Origin: Brucella pseudogrignonensis
GTDB taxonomy: Bacteria > Pseudomonadota > Alphaproteobacteria > Rhizobiales > Rhizobiaceae
DNA length: 64,000 nucleotides
Direction of reading: 5' to 3'
NCBI RefSeq assembly: GCF_002252525.1
Contig: NZ_NNRM01000011.1
Coordinates: 62,001 to 126,000, forward strand
Made by a program: the position numbers and the translations under genes. Each line of letters starts with the position of its first letter. Position 1 is the first letter of the stretch. This document shows, in pieces, positions 8,827-64,000 of this stretch. The notes beneath the pieces were generated by a model that saw only the letters and a program-made list of their open reading frames with translations, did no database searches and was not told the DNA's origin.

Positions 8827-9828
8827 ATGTCCATGTCTTCTATCTTGAAATCAAAGCCCGTCCGCTTTCTCGGCAAGTTCGTCTTCGTATTATTCGTAAT
8901 CATCTTTGCAATCTGGTCCAGCTTTGCCATGTGGTTCCAGTTGCCTTTCGGCAATGCTGTGCGCGGCTCGATCATCGCCGTCTGGCTGGCAATCGCGCTG
9001 TGGGTCATCGCAGGCGAGCGAAACTTCTATTGCATGCGCAAGCGACTGTTCTTCTGCCTGCTGGCACTGTTGATGCTCGGCTGGTGGGCCACCATCCGCC
9101 CATCGCTCGACCGCATCTGGGCACCAGACGTCGCGCGAACCGTTACCGGCAAGATTGATGGCGATAATGTTACGCTTTTCAATGTTCGCGATTTCGACTG
9201 GCGAACACCAAATGATTTCACACCCAACTGGAAAGAAGCCACCTACGATCTGAGCAAGATAAACTCTGTCGATGTTTACCTCTCCTATTGGGCGGGCCCG
9301 GCCATTGCGCATACGCTGTTGTCGTTCGGGTTTGAAGACGGCAGACACGTCGTCTTTTCTGGCGAAATCCGCAGGGAGCATCACGAGGTCTTTTCATCCA
9401 TAGGTGGATTTTTTCGCGAGTTTGAACTGGCGATGATCGCGGCGGAAGAAAGCGACATCATCTATCTGCGGACCAATGTGCGCAAAGAAAATGTCTTTCG
9501 CTATCGGGTAGACCTGCCCCCGGCAGGCGCAAGAGAGCTTTTCCTCTCTTATGTCGAGCTTGGCAATGAGCTGGCAGCCACACCCAAATTCTACAACACG
9601 CTGACCGCCAATTGTACGACGATCATTTTCACAATGGCGCGCGTGCTCGATCCGACCTTCCCATTTGATTATCGGATCCTGCTTTCAGGCTATCTGCCGG
9701 GATATCTCTACGACCATGGCTGGCTCGAAAATAATGGGACTCTGGAGCAGATAGAGGAACGTGCATCCATCGACGCCAAGGCGCAGGCTGGCGGACGTGA
9801 CGGCTATTCTGAACGCATACGCCAATAA
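8827..9828 (+). CDS. DUF4105 membrane protein
   Basis: A 333-residue protein with three N-terminal membrane segments (FVFVLFVIIFAIWSSFAMWF; SIIAVWLAIALWVIA; LFFCLLALLMLGWW) and a periplasmic DUF4105 (Lnb-like N-terminal) domain. Typical for the domain are VDVYLSYWAGPAIAHTLLSFGF, the VFSGEIRRE stretch and the conserved YNTLTANCTTIIF with its Cys near residue 262. The domain resembles thiol-peptidase-like folds, but its function is not established. ATG starts exist at 8827 and 8833; the first is kept. A strong hairpin terminator follows at once. Confidence 0.82.
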   Translation: MSMSSILKSKPVRFLGKFVFVLFVIIFAIWSSFAMWFQLPFGNAVRGSIIAVWLAIALWVIAGERNFYCMRKRLFFCLLALLMLGWWATIRPSLDRIWAPDVARTVTGKIDGDNVTLFNVRDFDWRTPNDFTPNWKEATYDLSKINSVDVYLSYWAGPAIAHTLLSFGFEDGRHVVFSGEIRREHHEVFSSIGGFFREFELAMIAAEESDIIYLRTNVRKENVFRYRVDLPPAGARELFLSYVELGNELAATPKFYNTLTANCTTIIFTMARVLDPTFPFDYRILLSGYLPGYLYDHGWLENNGTLEQIEERASIDAKAQAGGRDGYSERIRQ

Positions 9829-59003: not shown

Positions 59004-59093
59004 GGAGAGGTGGCCGAGTGGTTGAAGGCGCACGCCTGGAAAGTGTGTATACGGGGAACCGTATCGCGGGTTCGAATCCCGCTCTCTCCGCCA
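59004..59093 (+). tRNA. tRNA-Ser (anticodon GGA)
   Basis: A 90-nt class II tRNA with encoded CCA: acceptor GGAGAGG/CTCTCC, D arm with GGTTGAAG, anticodon stem CACGC/GTGTG around CTGGAAA with anticodon GGA, a long variable arm (GTATACGGGGAACCGTATC) and T arm GCGGGTTCGAATCCCGC. Reads TCC/TCT. It is followed at once by a phage-type integrase, so its 3' end is a likely integration site. Confidence 0.96.
59070..59093 (+). other. Candidate attL of an integrated element (tRNA 3' end)
   Basis: The T arm and 3' acceptor end of tRNA-Ser are a typical attachment core for tyrosine integrases whose gene lies next to the tRNA. The matching right-hand att copy is outside the window, so the site is inferred from position only. 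Confidence 0.45.
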
Positions 59094-59176
59094 TAATCAG
59101 CTCTTAAGCACTTGATTTACTTAAAATCAATAAGTTAGCATGTACTTTTGGTACACAAATCGGTACGCATGTGCTT

Positions 59177-60514
59177 ATGAAAAAAGCTGCCATTCCCGGA
59201 TTTGAAGCTCAGTACCTATTTGTAAGAGGTGATGGTAATTACCTCTACAGAAGGCGAATCCCTGCTCAATATCGAGTGCTGGCTGAAGGGAAGCTTGAGT
59301 TTAAGGCTTCTTTGAAGTGTAAGAACCACCATCAGGTCATAGAAAAATATGGCCAGATTCATGCTTATTATGAAGGCCTGATGGACCGCCTCAAGGCAGG
59401 CAAGAGCATAAACAGCATTGAAATAGAGCCTCTGAGCACCCTCAAAGCAAAAGCTGCTCAAGTTGGCATTCAATATAAGCCGATGGATGAGCTGATTAAG
59501 GCAAATGATCCATCCTTACTGTTTAGCAGAATTAATTTGGGTGAAGGTTTGATTAATGATGAGGTTGCCCTGCAATCATTGTTTGGCATGGCACCTGAGC
59601 TACCGACCCTGAATGATGTACTGAATTTTTATGAAGAGAATACCAGAGATCAGTTGATTGGAAAAAACACCAGAGAGATTTCAAAGAAGAAAGCTCCTGT
59701 CCAACTGGCTGTCAAAAGAGCCAATGATTTCTTTGGGGTAGACAAACCCCTTTCCCAGATTACCAAACAGCTTGCCCTTAGCTACAGATCACACATGGTT
59801 GACCTGGTTCAAACTGAGGAATTGAAAGCAGGTACTGCCAACAAGCAGATTATGCATCTGAGAAAAATCATCAGGTTCTATCTGGAACAGAACGATCTCA
59901 AGCAGGATAATCCTTTCAACAAAATTAGCCTGCAAGAAGAAAAGGCGGCCCGCCCGGCCTATTCAATTCAGTTCCTGAAAGAAAAGTGGCTCAGAGGCAC
60001 CCCTTTCTCATCACTCAATGATGAATCCCTGCATATCCTTTATGCCATCATGGACACAGGAACCGGTCCGAAGGAAATATGTGGGCTGGAACCTCAGGAC
60101 ATCCATCTGGATCATGAAGTTCCTCACATTGACATCAAACCAAACAAGATCAGGAAGCTCAAAACTGGCCACAGAGGCAGACAAATCCCTTTGATTGGCC
60201 AAAGCTTGATTGCCTTCAAGAAATATCCACACGGCTTCCCCTCTCATAACGGCCCAACAGGACCAGACAATTTCTCAGCCAATGTGAACAAATATCTGAA
60301 AGCGCATGGTCTCTGTGAAACTGATGAGCATGGCATCTACAGCCTTAGGCACACCTTCAAAGATAGAATGAGAAAACATAAGCTCCCATCCGAGCTGCAA
60401 AACTACCTGATGGGGCATAAAGACGGGTCAATCGGGGCGCATTATGGCAGCGGATACCCATTAAACGACATTCTGGACTACATGAAGCTTTTAGAAGCCG
60501 ATTGGAAAAAATAA
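59177..60514 (+). CDS. Tyrosine recombinase/integrase
   Basis: A 445-residue phage-type integrase. The N-terminal DUF6538-like region (FEAQYLFVRGDGNYLYRRRIP, residues 9-29) is followed by a SAM-like core-binding domain near residues 150-240 and the catalytic domain. Catalytic elements: beta-hairpin Lys in KLKTGHRGRQIPLIG, box II GIYSLRHTFKDRM (Arg present; Tyr in place of the usual His), and box III LMGHKDGSIGAHYGSGY with the nucleophile Tyr. Box I reads DTGTGPKEICGLEPQD, where the usual Arg (TGxR) is Gly. It abuts tRNA-Ser, so it is the integrase of this element. Start is ATG at 59177; a GTG at 59171 is also possible. Confidence 0.92.
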   Translation: MKKAAIPGFEAQYLFVRGDGNYLYRRRIPAQYRVLAEGKLEFKASLKCKNHHQVIEKYGQIHAYYEGLMDRLKAGKSINSIEIEPLSTLKAKAAQVGIQYKPMDELIKANDPSLLFSRINLGEGLINDEVALQSLFGMAPELPTLNDVLNFYEENTRDQLIGKNTREISKKKAPVQLAVKRANDFFGVDKPLSQITKQLALSYRSHMVDLVQTEELKAGTANKQIMHLRKIIRFYLEQNDLKQDNPFNKISLQEEKAARPAYSIQFLKEKWLRGTPFSSLNDESLHILYAIMDTGTGPKEICGLEPQDIHLDHEVPHIDIKPNKIRKLKTGHRGRQIPLIGQSLIAFKKYPHGFPSHNGPTGPDNFSANVNKYLKAHGLCETDEHGIYSLRHTFKDRMRKHKLPSELQNYLMGHKDGSIGAHYGSGYPLNDILDYMKLLEADWKK

Positions 60515-61047: not shown

Positions 61048-61725
61048 ATGAATATACAGAATCCATCCATTTATGGATATCTGCCGACAGGCAGATCAAT
61101 AATTAACTCTAGTCATGATCAATGGCTCTATGATCTCTTTATGGAAAAATTCAGATTTGACTTTAATGATCCAAATATAAAATACAAACAGGCTCATTTT
61201 GAGAAAAATCTGTATTTCATAACAATGCAGTTCAGAACCGGATTGTTTGCAGCTAAAGATGCGAAGTCAATTTACAACTCCAGACCAATGTTTGAATCCT
61301 TCCGGCTCTGGTATTTGGATGCTGTCAGAACCGTTATGGGGCCGAGAGCAGGCAATAAACTCAAATATCAGCCCTTTACTGTAGCCTGTCTGGATGTTGA
61401 AGGCACGGCTCAAGGTGCCGCTGCAACAGTTTTTCAGACACCACATATTCATGCCTGTCTTCTGGTCCATCCAAACAATCAGCATGAATTTGAAAATCAT
61501 CTTCTGTCTTTGAAAGCCAAACAATTCAGGGACCAGATCATATCCAAGATCGACATTAAGCAGTTTAAGGATGACGGCAGGGGAATTGAGCCGATGCTGA
61601 CCTACTCATCCAAATATGCCAGAGAACAGCAATCCAGCCCAAGGCATACGGTTCTGTTGGAAGCCTATCCCGCTGTCGATGCTAAGAATTATCCGTTTTA
61701 TTCAGAGCGAACCTCACCAGATTGA
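61048..61725 (+). CDS. Putative HUH endonuclease (rolling-circle Rep-like)
   Basis: A 225-residue protein with the three blocks expected of HUH-superfamily nicking enzymes in the right order. Block 1 is YFITMQFRTG near residues 56-65 (motif FxTLTF-like). Block 2 is FQTPHIHACLLVHP near residues 129-142, containing His-Ile-His (HUH). Block 3 is MLTYSSKYAREQ near residues 187-198, a Tyr followed by Lys (YxxxK). It has a single catalytic Tyr as in Rep of plasmids and inoviruses. It lies after the palindrome cluster, a possible origin. No helicase or primase partner is visible. Confidence 0.6.
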   Translation: MNIQNPSIYGYLPTGRSIINSSHDQWLYDLFMEKFRFDFNDPNIKYKQAHFEKNLYFITMQFRTGLFAAKDAKSIYNSRPMFESFRLWYLDAVRTVMGPRAGNKLKYQPFTVACLDVEGTAQGAAATVFQTPHIHACLLVHPNNQHEFENHLLSLKAKQFRDQIISKIDIKQFKDDGRGIEPMLTYSSKYAREQQSSPRHTVLLEAYPAVDAKNYPFYSERTSPD

Positions 61726-61917: not shown

Positions 61918-62877
61918 ATGGCAAAGGAAAGCTACGCTGCTGTTCTACTAACACAAGGTGAACACCGCTTTTATCAACTCGCTATGCCTAGCGACGTCTT
62001 AGGAGCATGCACATTTGTTTCAACAAGAGATGAAGATCCTGATAAAGGTTTTCAACGACTGCTCGATGAAAAGCGTGCTAAAGAAATTGCTGCGTATCTT
62101 GACACGGGACATGGAACCATCCCTACCTCAGTAATACTTTCCGCTCAAGAAATAGCAGAAATTGATTATGACTCACGAAACAAAACAATAAGCTTTGAAT
62201 CAACGCCTGTCTCCTTCTTAATATTAGACGGACAACACAGAGTTTATGGTTTCAGGTTAGCTGAAACAAAAATACGTGTACCTGTCATAATCTATGATGG
62301 CTTGAGCAGGCGCGACGAATCGCGTCTTTTTATTGATATAAATTCCAAACAACGCGGCGTTCCATCTGAATTATTACTTGATATAAAGAAACAAGCTGAA
62401 TACGAAAATTCAGAGGAGCAGCTGTTTAGAGACGTCTTTGACAGGATGAACAATGATCCTAGCAGCCCGCTTTATGACCAATTATCTCCATCAAAGCGAT
62501 CTAAATCAAAGATTTCACGAGTCACATTCAATGCGGCACTTAAAAGTATTTATCCCGTGATTTCTTCGCGAGGACCCGATGAGATATACGATATTATTTC
62601 TGAATACATAGCGTGCGTAAGAGATCAAATTATTAGGAATGGCGGAGAGCCTACATTAATACTCAACAGCGTCACATTTAGGTCTATAGTTTCCTTCTTT
62701 ATACACGCGGCAAGACGAGTAAAAGATCGATTTGGACCAGAATATACAATTGATAATTTTAATACGGTCTTAACTCCTCTTTTTGACAACATTCAGCTTT
62801 CGAAGCTTTCCGGATCCTCGCAATCCAAAATTGTTGAATATCTGGAAAAGCACTTTAAAGGTGAGTTTCAACTTTGA
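61918..62877 (+). CDS. DGQHR-domain protein (DndB-like)
   Basis: A 319-residue protein carrying the DGQHR signature: FLILDGQHRVYGFRLAETK near residues 100-118, preceded by TIPTSVILSAQEIAEIDYDS and followed by LFIDINSKQRGVPSELLLDI, an arrangement typical of DndB and its relatives. DndB is a regulatory protein of DNA phosphorothioate modification clusters, and relatives occur with other DNA-modification systems (family knowledge). No dndA/C/D/E genes are visible here. The ATG at 61918 (AAAGGT upstream) is preferred over 61873. The next gene starts within this stop codon. Confidence 0.8.
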   Translation: MAKESYAAVLLTQGEHRFYQLAMPSDVLGACTFVSTRDEDPDKGFQRLLDEKRAKEIAAYLDTGHGTIPTSVILSAQEIAEIDYDSRNKTISFESTPVSFLILDGQHRVYGFRLAETKIRVPVIIYDGLSRRDESRLFIDINSKQRGVPSELLLDIKKQAEYENSEEQLFRDVFDRMNNDPSSPLYDQLSPSKRSKSKISRVTFNAALKSIYPVISSRGPDEIYDIISEYIACVRDQIIRNGGEPTLILNSVTFRSIVSFFIHAARRVKDRFGPEYTIDNFNTVLTPLFDNIQLSKLSGSSQSKIVEYLEKHFKGEFQL

Positions 62878-63821
62878 ACCAGAGTGATTTGGAGCTTTTG
62901 CGTTCTCTTTGGCATCCGTTAAGCTACGTGTCTGATGATGACTGCCGTCAGACGATGAAGTTATGGCTAATGGAAGGAAACTATGACTTAAATAACTCAC
63001 CTCCGAATGCCTCGATCTATTGCCATGATAAAAATGATGTTAAAAAGTGTCTTTCATTGGATGCTTTTAAGTTTGCCTCCCATGCTGCACAGACAGTCTA
63101 TGAACTTGAAAAGACGTCCGCGTTCACCAAACTAACATCCTGGCGACTGATACAAGTCTATTATGCGGCTTATTTCTCGGCTCATTCTACTCTAAGATAT
63201 TTTGGTCGCTCATTCAGTCACCTCGAAGGCGGACACGTGAGGTTTATCAAAGATCGATGCTCGTCGGAGGTTGGATATTTACCCAAACTTCCATCCAGCT
63301 ATTATCTGATTAAGTTCTCGCCAGATAAACAAGAGATATCGCTAGAAGTTCAAGACGAGAGTCACAAAGATCTCTGGAGCTGTTACCGCACCCTTCTTCA
63401 GGAACTATCGTCAGATGCTCTCAAACTTCGTGCTTCTGAGAACAGACGGTTGAAGTTATCAAATATGTTTTCTGATATTGAAAACTCAATCAGCAACAAT
63501 GGAAAGAATCCATCAGGAAACTGGCTGTCTACTGTAAGAAATGAAGCTAACTATAAATCACTACAGGGAGTTTGGTTTCCATTTACCAAAGAAACTCCAA
63601 TATTCCGAGAGTTAATGGAAAAGGTAAAAAACTGGCGCAAGCTATCATTAGAAATTGAAAGCCCTAACTTGGCTAAAAATGAACTTGAACGTTTTTTCCT
63701 GACTGCATTCTCTGTAATTGATATCGGAATTTCTATTACTTCAGATTATAAATCACTTATAAAAAAGCCGGATAGGCGTTCAAAAGGCTACAATCACTTA
63801 CTTCAAAGCAGTGCAGCCTAA
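62874..63821 (+). CDS. Helical protein of unknown function, coupled to the DGQHR gene
   Basis: A 315-residue protein starting with TTG inside the DGQHR stop (TTGA overlap), with AGGTGAG upstream. It is rich in long helices; the segment RLIQVYYAAYFSAHSTLRYFG near residues 90-110 resembles the core helix of HEPN/YaaC-like proteins (YYAxFxAxHxxLR), and GGHVRFIKDRC follows. No catalytic RxxxxH pair could be placed with confidence. Its function is unknown; a partner of the DGQHR protein is implied by translational coupling. Confidence 0.65.
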   Translation: MNQSDLELLRSLWHPLSYVSDDDCRQTMKLWLMEGNYDLNNSPPNASIYCHDKNDVKKCLSLDAFKFASHAAQTVYELEKTSAFTKLTSWRLIQVYYAAYFSAHSTLRYFGRSFSHLEGGHVRFIKDRCSSEVGYLPKLPSSYYLIKFSPDKQEISLEVQDESHKDLWSCYRTLLQELSSDALKLRASENRRLKLSNMFSDIENSISNNGKNPSGNWLSTVRNEANYKSLQGVWFPFTKETPIFRELMEKVKNWRKLSLEIESPNLAKNELERFFLTAFSVIDIGISITSDYKSLIKKPDRRSKGYNHLLQSSAA

Positions 63822-63894
63822 ATTTCACGGTCAATATTAGCTGTATTGACTAAATTACATGTAAATTAATAAAAGATATAAATGGGGGCGGAAA

Positions 63895-64000
63895 ATGAAT
63901 ATGGTTCAACTAACATCGGTGCAAGGTATTCGCGAAGCGGGATACAATGAAGCTTGGCTTCAAGATATGATTTGGAAGAACCCATCATGTTTGGGTTTCG
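63895..64000 (+). CDS. Third gene of the element operon, 5' part only (possible nuclease family)
   Basis: Only the first 35 residues are inside the window: MNMVQLTSVQGIREAGYNEAW then LQDMIWKNPSCLGF. A GGGGGCGG site precedes the ATG. The stretch around WLQDMIWKNPSCLG resembles the start of some PD-(D/E)XK restriction-like proteins (LQxxIxxNPxLLG), but this is a weak match on a short fragment. The gap of 73 bases from the previous gene is consistent with an operon. No claim on function beyond that. Confidence 0.4.
   Translation, partial: MNMVQLTSVQGIREAGYNEAWLQDMIWKNPSCLGF

What the first reader, a model, noticed from the sequence alone, without database searches (positions are those of the whole stretch)
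61918..64000. Operon of a DGQHR (DndB-like) protein, a HEPN/YaaC-like helical protein and a possible nuclease on an integrated element
Seen: the DGQHR signature (residues 100-118), a second gene starting inside its stop codon, and a third truncated gene with a good ribosome site beginning LQDMIWKNPSCLG. Known: DGQHR proteins regulate or accompany DNA modification clusters (DndB). Inference: the three could form a compact modification-sensing or defence module on a mobile element with no dnd or restriction core visible. This is the best candidate for an undescribed system in the window.
Basis: partly seen in the sequence, partly recalled or inferred. Interest (0 to 1): 0.8.

Follow-up and report, generated by a model that had tools for sequence, protein, structure and literature searches.

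The report
Candidate two-gene phage-defence cassette
The first two of the three genes form a conserved pair that travels together on phages, plasmids and genomic islands and looks like a small, so far unnamed virus-defence cassette; the third gene is an unrelated neighbour.

Summary
In detail: a DGQHR (DndB-family) gene, a second gene starting inside its stop codon, and a third gene that runs off the window (complete on the contig). They lie on a likely 11 kb tRNA-Ser island; none of nine proteins scanned is a dnd gene. Genes 1 and 2 are a unit: in 50 of 80 related DGQHR loci the partner follows directly, and all 4 of 398 genomes with a partner hit (one is this genome) have DGQHR upstream. Gene 3 occurs at no other cassette locus examined. 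In 11 of 23 viral contigs the pair lies upstream of a P2-type portal gene, a published anti-phage hotspot. In 6 of 50 genomic pairs, one plasmid and one phage it sits beside methyltransferase or restriction genes. Models give a ParB/sulfiredoxin domain for gene 1 and, moderately, a HEPN fold for gene 2, with a conserved Arg and an alternative His. Best reading: an abortive defence module, standalone or coupled to restriction, in which an NTP switch controls a HEPN RNase. The partner has no model in PADLOC 2023, Pfam or NCBIfam. No experiment exists.

The parts
61918..62877 (+). Gene 1: DGQHR protein; N-terminal ParB/sulfiredoxin-type domain plus C-terminal helical domain. Alternative start 61873.
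62874..63821 (+). Gene 2: 315 aa partner, HEPN-like, TTG start overlapping the stop of gene 1. H164 and R222 nearly invariant in the family; the canonical HEPN His (229) is Ser here.
63895..64000 (+). Gene 3: 283 aa protein, PD-(D/E)XK-like by recall, cut by the window end (ends at window-equivalent 64746). Neighbour, not part of the conserved unit.
59004..59093 (+). tRNA-Ser(GGA), insertion site of the island; its last 15 nt recur 11.0 kb downstream (attL/attR-like)
59171..60514 (+). Tyrosine integrase of the island
   Evidence: PF00589 31.4 bits; phrog_1

Best explanation
Genes 1 and 2 are a two-gene anti-phage (anti-invader) cassette with gene 2 as effector. Gene 1 is a DndB-type ParB/sulfiredoxin-fold protein, inferred to bind and hydrolyse a nucleotide and to contact DNA. 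Gene 2 is inferred to be a HEPN-fold RNase using R222 with an alternative histidine, H164, in place of the classical Rx4-6H histidine. Most likely gene 1 holds gene 2 inactive and, when invading or improperly modified DNA changes its nucleotide or DNA state, releases it to cut RNA and stop the infection. Where restriction-modification genes stand beside it, the pair would act as a second line behind restriction, as PrrC does for PrrI. In the window it stands without such genes. Shown: the pair, its co-inheritance, its location on mobile elements and in the P2 defence hotspot, the models and the conserved residues. Inferred: defence activity, NTPase, RNase, inhibition and trigger. The confidence below is for 'defence cassette with gene 2 as effector'; defence function alone about 0.7, the whole switch-RNase mechanism about 0.45.
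For: Pairing: 50 of 80 genomic DGQHR loci have the partner within -60 to +30 nt; 20 of 23 viral DGQHR loci have it, one only as an 82 aa piece; from the partner side, 4 of 4 genomes with a hit (of 398; one is the window's own) have DGQHR directly upstream. Distance matrices of the two proteins r = 0.74 over 46 pairs (window and 45 loci), 0 of 2000 permutations reach it; shared ancestry of hosts is not removed. Paracoccus L030 shares DNA with this island only over these two genes. Mobile contexts: Pf-type filamentous phage next to the repressor, Acinetobacter phage behind cI and a methyltransferase, plasmids. P2-like phages: a portal gene lies downstream of the pair in 11 of 23 viral contigs (in L131 and L132 with one ORF between), with a replication-gene relative upstream in 8 of the 11; that gpA-gpQ interval carries old, tin and other validated systems (PMC9122126, PMC9519451, passages). 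Restriction-modification: N6/N4 MTase plus NotI-type enzyme directly upstream in L006, L068, L082, L086, L102; C5 MTase and NgoMIV-type enzyme downstream and HNH gene upstream in L053; MTase upstream and MmeI-type R-M fusion downstream in L057; MTase upstream in L026. Fold: HEPN AF0298 (2hsb) is the top structural match, Roquin ROQ domains next; PMC3710099 (passages) states that AF0298 lacks the motif His and has an alternative His between helices 2 and 3, where H164 lies. H164 in 79 of 80 and R222 in 80 of 80 partners.
Confidence: 0.55

Rival explanations
1. Regulator pair: the DGQHR protein is a nucleotide-modulated repressor (as reported for DndB) with a structural partner, controlling element or R-M gene expression rather than defending.
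For: DndB of Salmonella is reported as a regulator (PMC4507180, title and one passage; PMC10853773, passage). The pair sits beside repressors in PfAC19 and the Acinetobacter phage and next to R-M genes. The ParB N-domain matches include the repressor KorB.
Against: Most pairs have no constant neighbour to regulate. The fast-evolving partner keeps polar, catalytic-looking residues (H164, R222, Y227). Presence in the P2 gpA-gpQ hotspot fits cargo, not a core regulator.
Confidence: 0.15
2. Toxin-antitoxin (addiction) module of mobile elements: gene 1 neutralises a HEPN toxin encoded by gene 2, with element maintenance as the main benefit.
For: Two-gene operon with the putative inhibitor first; found on plasmids and phages. 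MNT-HEPN toxin-antitoxin pairs are a known class (PMC3710099, passages).
Against: Proteins are larger than usual TA partners (recalled). A Tritonibacter partner gene persists as an intact ORF with no DGQHR gene found in 12.7 kb, directly behind genes that read like IS21 (recalled), which an addictive toxin should not tolerate if expressed. P2 hotspot and R-M linkage point to defence; the two ideas are not exclusive.
Confidence: 0.15
3. Counter-defence: the pair protects incoming phages and plasmids from host restriction or modification-sensing systems.
For: Carried by phages and plasmids. ParB/Srx protein Osa acts in plasmid conflict (recalled; title cited in PMC10853773).
Against: Some copies sit inside R-M operons, which is odd for an anti-restriction device; the P2 hotspot is documented for defence genes.
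Confidence: 0.08
4. All three genes form one system, with gene 3 the DNA nuclease effector.
For: Same strand, 73 nt gap, good ribosome site; no terminator-like site between genes 2 and 3 and one after gene 3, although the number of such sites in the region (3) is what shuffles give (mean 2.9).
Against: No gene 3 relative at any other cassette locus among L001-L140; four opened relatives elsewhere have no DGQHR gene beside them. The Paracoccus homology ends with gene 2.
Confidence: 0.05

Closest known systems
DUF262 (GmrSD_N) + HEPN MAE_28990 two-gene arrangement
   Same: A ParB/Srx-fold gene followed directly by a HEPN gene; seen here in both loci opened (L141, L142, of three hits), and PMC3710099 lists MAE_28990 as in operon with a ParB nuclease and DNA methylase genes.
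   Different: Other ParB subfamily (DGSQR/DGLQR, not DGQHR) and a HEPN family with the classical motif (RNKLAH, RNDIAH); no detectable profile similarity to the present partner (hhalign probability 0.1%, against only 2 sequences).
PrrC with PrrI, and other HEPN proteins coupled to R-M
   Same: Inferred logic: an RNase held in check next to an R-M system as second line of defence (PMC3710099, passages).
   Different: PrrC has an ABC ATPase and a type I R-M system; here a ParB/Srx protein, type II enzymes, and in most pairs no R-M gene detected.
DndB of DNA phosphorothioation systems; DpdB of 7-deazaguanine systems
   Same: Same DGQHR/DndB superfamily; PADLOC's DpdB model matches gene 1 at 44.6 bits.
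   Different: Far below the NCBIfam equivalog cut-offs (DndB 10.9 of 328 bits, DpdB 48.6 of 300, DGQHR_dnd_1 85.5 of 450); no modification genes among the island proteins scanned; DndC not found in the genome.
GmrSD / SspE / BrxU / DndI
   Different: Effector there is an HNH nuclease; none here; no DUF262 match.
HEPN AF0298-like (2hsb) and AbiV
   Same: 2hsb is the top structural match; motif Arg kept, alternative His.
   Different: AF0298 is a small single-domain protein; this partner has a beta-rich insert, extra helices and its own conserved W-x5-YY and H-x3-W motifs.

Membership tests
DGQHR domain (TIGR03187) | Curated score cut-off | tested here: met
   149.9 bits against 58.85
DndB / Dnd system | DndB equivalog cut-off (TIGR03233) | tested here: not met
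   10.9 against 328 bits; the broader Pfam family PF14072 is met, 46.5 against 29.1
DndB / Dnd system | Adjacent dndCDE genes | tested here: not met
   None among the 9 island proteins scanned; no DndC in the whole assembly; DndD and DndE not searched genome-wide
DpdB / Dpd system | DpdB equivalog cut-off (NF041060) | tested here: not met
   48.6 against 300 bits
ParB/sulfiredoxin fold (gene 1 N-domain) | Fold of the N-terminal domain | tested here: met
ParB/sulfiredoxin fold (gene 1 N-domain) | Nucleotide binding or hydrolysis | not testable with these tools
   Needs biochemistry
HEPN superfamily (gene 2) | HEPN fold | tested here: inconclusive
HEPN superfamily (gene 2) | Rx4-6H motif | tested here: not met
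   Window protein has R222-x6-Ser; His at this place in 45 of 80 partners
HEPN superfamily, AF0298/AbiV-like variant | Arg kept plus an alternative conserved His between helices 2 and 3 | tested here: met
   H164 at the end of the insert; 80 of 80 by the alignment, 79 after reading L024 directly (the only row so read); R222 80 of 80. Depends on the fold being right
HEPN MAE_28990 (PF18737) | Profile similarity | tested here: not met
   Not among the 10 families matched by any of the 47 members at E 0.1; hhalign probability 0.1%
YaaC | Pfam match | tested here: not met
   No YaaC hit at E 1
GmrSD / SspE | DUF262 plus HNH/DUF1524 | tested here: not met
   Neither family hit in genes 1-3 at E 1
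PADLOC-DB 2.0.0 systems | A model matching gene 2 | tested here: not met
   No hit for P0002; of 47 partners only two stray single hits
P2-like defence hotspot cargo (relatives, not the window) | Location between replication gene gpA and portal gpQ | tested here: met
   Portal relative downstream in 11 of 23 viral contigs, replication-gene relative upstream in 8 of these (identities by PHROGs)

The most novel reading that the evidence does not exclude
A previously unnamed family of anti-phage systems, found by record title in about nine bacterial phyla and in P2-like and Pf-type phages, in which a DndB-type ParB/Srx nucleotide switch directly governs a HEPN RNase with a non-classical His-Arg active site, either alone or as the back-up arm of restriction-modification operons.
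Probability: 0.42. Interest if true: 0.75.

Novelty: new variant of a known kind. Interest (0 to 1): 0.62.

Why it matters
DGQHR proteins are mostly unexplained and known chiefly through DndB and DpdB. A two-gene unit without any modification genes isolates what such a protein does: it offers a minimal system in which to ask whether a ParB/Srx switch can arm an RNase, and what it senses. Copies inside NotI-type, NgoMIV-type and MmeI-type R-M loci, and one phage copy (L026) behind a methyltransferase with no endonuclease gene beside it in the annotation, make the modification-sensing idea directly testable. If active, the pair adds a small, portable module to P2 and Pf phages that PADLOC does not flag (for PfAC19 the paper's table lists only a toxin-antitoxin and PfsE; PMC11878078, passages).

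Tried and rejected
Gene 3 as part of the system: rejected. YaaC: no match. MAE_28990 homology: none detected, though against only two sequences. A phase-variable switch after gene 3: the inverted repeat at L002 8758-8787/8933-8962 beside a short recombinase looked like an invertible element, but the first arm is itself a terminator-like hairpin, so I dropped it. Empty insertion site: the 1005 bases right of the island matched none of 60 relatives, only the own genome, so the island ends rest on the tRNA repeat alone. Single-protein searches with P0002 reached little: 0 confirmed in viral contigs, none in phage records, and two weak genome hits (L004, L005) that the later profile did not confirm. 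PDB sequence searches gave no credible relative for genes 1-3. E. coli genomes: no DNA match with one P2-phage copy. Foldseek alone for gene 2 shows only rhodopsin-type proteins at poor scores in the 50 rows listed. No HEPN entry other than AF0298 and ROQ was among the 50 structural rows shown; this excludes nothing. An earlier thought that L057 is a methyltransferase-only copy was dropped after (MmeI-type R-M fusion downstream).

Selection to bear in mind: the genomic set is the best 80 of 383 relatives, 303 not examined; of 25 plasmid records with a gene 1 relative 7 were opened (4 with the partner: L006, L022, L023, L024; 3 without: L027, L028, L029), of 3 phage records 2 (both with the partner). 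Neighbour families were scanned for 148 proteins only (110-1000 aa, complete, within two to three genes, first 25 of 147 families shown) and 18 named proteins. Rows dropped: A3 holds the window and 46 loci (partners under 270 aa and, by my choice, L041 and L044 left out); A4 holds the window, 45 paired and 4 partnerless loci; the 80-partner count leaves out partners under 250 aa and identical copies.

Full report
WHERE IT LIES. The window is bases 62001-126000 of a 133 kb contig, so 7.1 kb beyond the window could be read (L002 = contig 118001-133083; window position = L002 + 56000). A tyrosine integrase (59171-60514) follows tRNA-Ser(GGA) (59004-59093). The last 15 nt of that tRNA gene recur exactly at L002 14079-14093, 11.0 kb downstream (17 of 18 in the reported repeat), which marks a likely island of 11 kb. 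I could not show an empty site: the right flank matched none of 60 relatives. The host genus was not identified.

THE THREE GENES. Gene 1 (61918-62877) is a DGQHR protein: TIGR03187 149.9 bits against a cut-off of 58.85, but far under the equivalog cut-offs for DndB, DpdB and DGQHR_dnd_1. Gene 2 starts with TTG inside the stop codon of gene 1, encodes 315 aa and matches no family of Pfam, NCBIfam, PADLOC or PHROGs better than E 0.1. Gene 3 (63895 to 64746) encodes 283 aa with no Pfam family; its two aligned relatives share E-R-x-Q-P-x-x-G-R-[IL]-D and Y-x-V-E-[IL]-x-L-G-x-T-D-E-[ST]-H blocks, which I read, from recall, as a PD-(D/E)XK-like nuclease. The nine island proteins scanned include no dnd, dpd or methyltransferase gene, and DndC was not found in the assembly.

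GENES 1 AND 2 ARE A UNIT. I first saw the same two-gene order on an Acinetobacter plasmid (L006), Providencia, Burkholderia glumae and Leptospira plasmids (L022-L024), a filamentous Pseudomonas phage (L025) and an Acinetobacter phage (L026). The ~300 aa second proteins align, with Y96, W168, R222, N223 and Y227 invariant in 8 of 8. A genome-wide scan with the DGQHR alignment gave 383 relatives, of which the best 80 were kept. With a profile of the partner, 51 of 80 have a partner, 50 within -60 to +30 nt; in the other (L072) both genes are interrupted. Of the 29 without, 4 run off the contig within 512 nt and 25 are real absences. By record title these 25 are 21 of Methylocystis, Methylosinus or Methylocystaceae and 4 other alphaproteobacterial or Hyphomicrobiales MAGs. 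The eight more distant DGQHR relatives (26-37% identity) found in 372 genomes of the class also lack the partner within their short flanks, as do plasmid loci L027-L029; the pairing belongs to one part of the DGQHR family. By titles the pairs occur in Pseudomonadota, Desulfobacterota (Geobacter), Acidobacteriota, Gemmatimonadota, Bacillota, Planctomycetota, Verrucomicrobiota, Bacteroidota and Cyanobacteriota (phylum assignment recalled), and in a Leptospira plasmid. The converse holds: the partner profile rings in 4 of 398 genomes of the phylum, the window's own among them, and all 4 have DGQHR directly upstream. Distances of the two proteins correlate (r = 0.74 over 46 pairs, 0 of 2000 permutations reach it; host relatedness not removed), while mean identity is 50% for gene 1 and 25% for gene 2: the partner evolves much faster. 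No ORF matched both profiles, so no fusion was seen.

GENE 3 IS NOT PART OF IT. BLAST of gene 3 against the ORFs of loci L001-L140 found it, outside its own locus, only at the loci fetched for it (Priestia, Rhodococcus and two Bradyrhizobium plasmids, of 14 plasmid records with a match), where no DGQHR gene is annotated nearby. The Paracoccus alkanivorans locus L030 (gene 1 79% identical) shares nucleotide similarity with this stretch only between L002 5927 and 7724, that is over genes 1 and 2. Genes 1-3 may still be co-transcribed: no terminator-like site lies between genes 2 and 3 and one follows gene 3, but three such sites in the region are no more than shuffles give.

WHERE THE PAIR LIVES. 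Of 23 viral-contig DGQHR loci 20 have the partner, one only as an 82 aa piece. In 11 of the 23 a P2-type portal gene, on the opposite strand, follows (in L131 and L132 with one ORF between), and in 8 of these a relative of the replication nickase lies upstream. Portal, terminase and nickase identities were checked by PHROGs for ten proteins: nine as expected, one (in L139, not among the 11) instead ParB-like. Two of the 11 (L133, L134) have identical DGQHR proteins. PMC9122126 (passages) defines the cos-proximal region between gpA and gpQ as a hotspot of anti-phage systems, including old and tin; PMC9519451 (passages) found four of its 21 systems there. In PfAC19 the pair sits between the repressor and an accessory ORF, and the paper on that phage lists only TA and PfsE for it (passages of PMC11878078). 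On a Providencia plasmid it lies between umuD and umuC.

LINK TO RESTRICTION-MODIFICATION. In L068, L082, L086 and L102 (of the 50 genomic pairs) and on plasmid L006, an N6/N4 methyltransferase and a NotI-type endonuclease stand directly upstream in the same direction, with -4 to +82 nt before gene 1. Pfam gives N6_N4_Mtase for all five; NotI is over its cut-off of 22 bits in four (37.2, 33.9, 25.9, 26.8) and just under in L086 (21.4). L053 has an HNH gene upstream and, downstream, a C5 methyltransferase followed by an NgoMIV-type enzyme (328 bits). L057 has a methyltransferase 189 nt upstream and an MmeI-type R-M fusion 317 nt downstream. Phage L026 has a methyltransferase 2 nt upstream and no endonuclease annotated next to the pair. 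The Leptospira plasmid L024 has an Mrr-type gene 277 nt downstream on the other strand. Thus 6 of 50 genomic pairs are linked to methyltransferase genes; my BLAST seeds and the 148-protein Pfam scan (N6_N4_Mtase in 5, NotI in 3) would miss other types, and I had no matched control set of loci.

MECHANISM. By analogy with DUF262-MAE_28990 pairs (seen here in L141 and L142) and with PrrC-PrrI (PMC3710099, passages), I propose that gene 1 is a nucleotide- and DNA-responsive switch that restrains an RNase encoded by gene 2 and releases it on infection. Nested confidence: defence function about 0.7; defence with gene 2 as effector 0.55; the whole switch-RNase mechanism about 0.45. The trigger is unknown; loss or absence of proper methylation is a candidate only for the R-M-linked copies.

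NOVELTY. DGQHR occurs in 6 papers of the library; I read passages of four (PMC4619093, PMC4507180, PMC3226654, PMC12757443) and saw two in the listing only. None of the passages describes a DGQHR-HEPN pair. Further searches; passages read of PMC10853773, PMC12839542, PMC3506569, PMC11662687, PMC10952713. Most subscription papers and preprints are not covered, and newer defence-system catalogues than PADLOC-DB 2023 were not at hand. ParB-HEPN association as such is known (PMC3710099), so I rate this a new variant of a known kind.

Noticed in passing
window-equivalent 67364-69859 (L002:11364-13859, - strand): 831 aa protein on the same island with an N-terminal stretch that reads like a restriction-type nuclease motif (recalled) and a P-loop ATPase domain (AAA_22 27.4 bits); matches phage family phrog_14719 of unknown function over nearly its whole length (260 bits). 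Possibly a second defence gene.
   Followed up: partly
61048-61725: 225 aa protein with a TPHIHACLLV stretch that resembles the HxH motif of rolling-circle replication proteins (recalled); no Pfam or PHROG match, no phage relative.
   Followed up: partly
window-equivalent 65022-65729 (L002:9022-9729): Second, short tyrosine recombinase on the island (Phage_integrase 69.5 bits), apparently the catalytic domain only.
   Followed up: no
L002:8758-8787 and 8933-8962: 30 nt inverted repeat (90%) 145 nt apart after gene 3, the first arm itself a terminator-like hairpin; no other copy in the genome.
   Followed up: partly
L075-L109 (Methylocystis, Methylosinus and related MAGs): 25 DGQHR loci without the partner, many with a shared convergent 230-690 aa ORF downstream: a different DGQHR context.
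   Followed up: no
L022:5950-7820: In a Providencia plasmid the pair lies between umuD and umuC.
   Followed up: no
L007:5872-6801: Tritonibacter plasmid: partner gene intact but directly behind genes that read like IS21, with no DGQHR gene found in the 12.7 kb.
   Followed up: partly
L141, L142: HEPN MAE_28990 genes directly behind GmrSD_N (DUF262) genes: a parallel ParB/Srx-HEPN pair.
   Followed up: partly
L118/L120:6716-7357 (- strand): A viral contig with the pair also has a C5 methyltransferase relative (33% over 175 aa) about 1 kb downstream.
   Followed up: no
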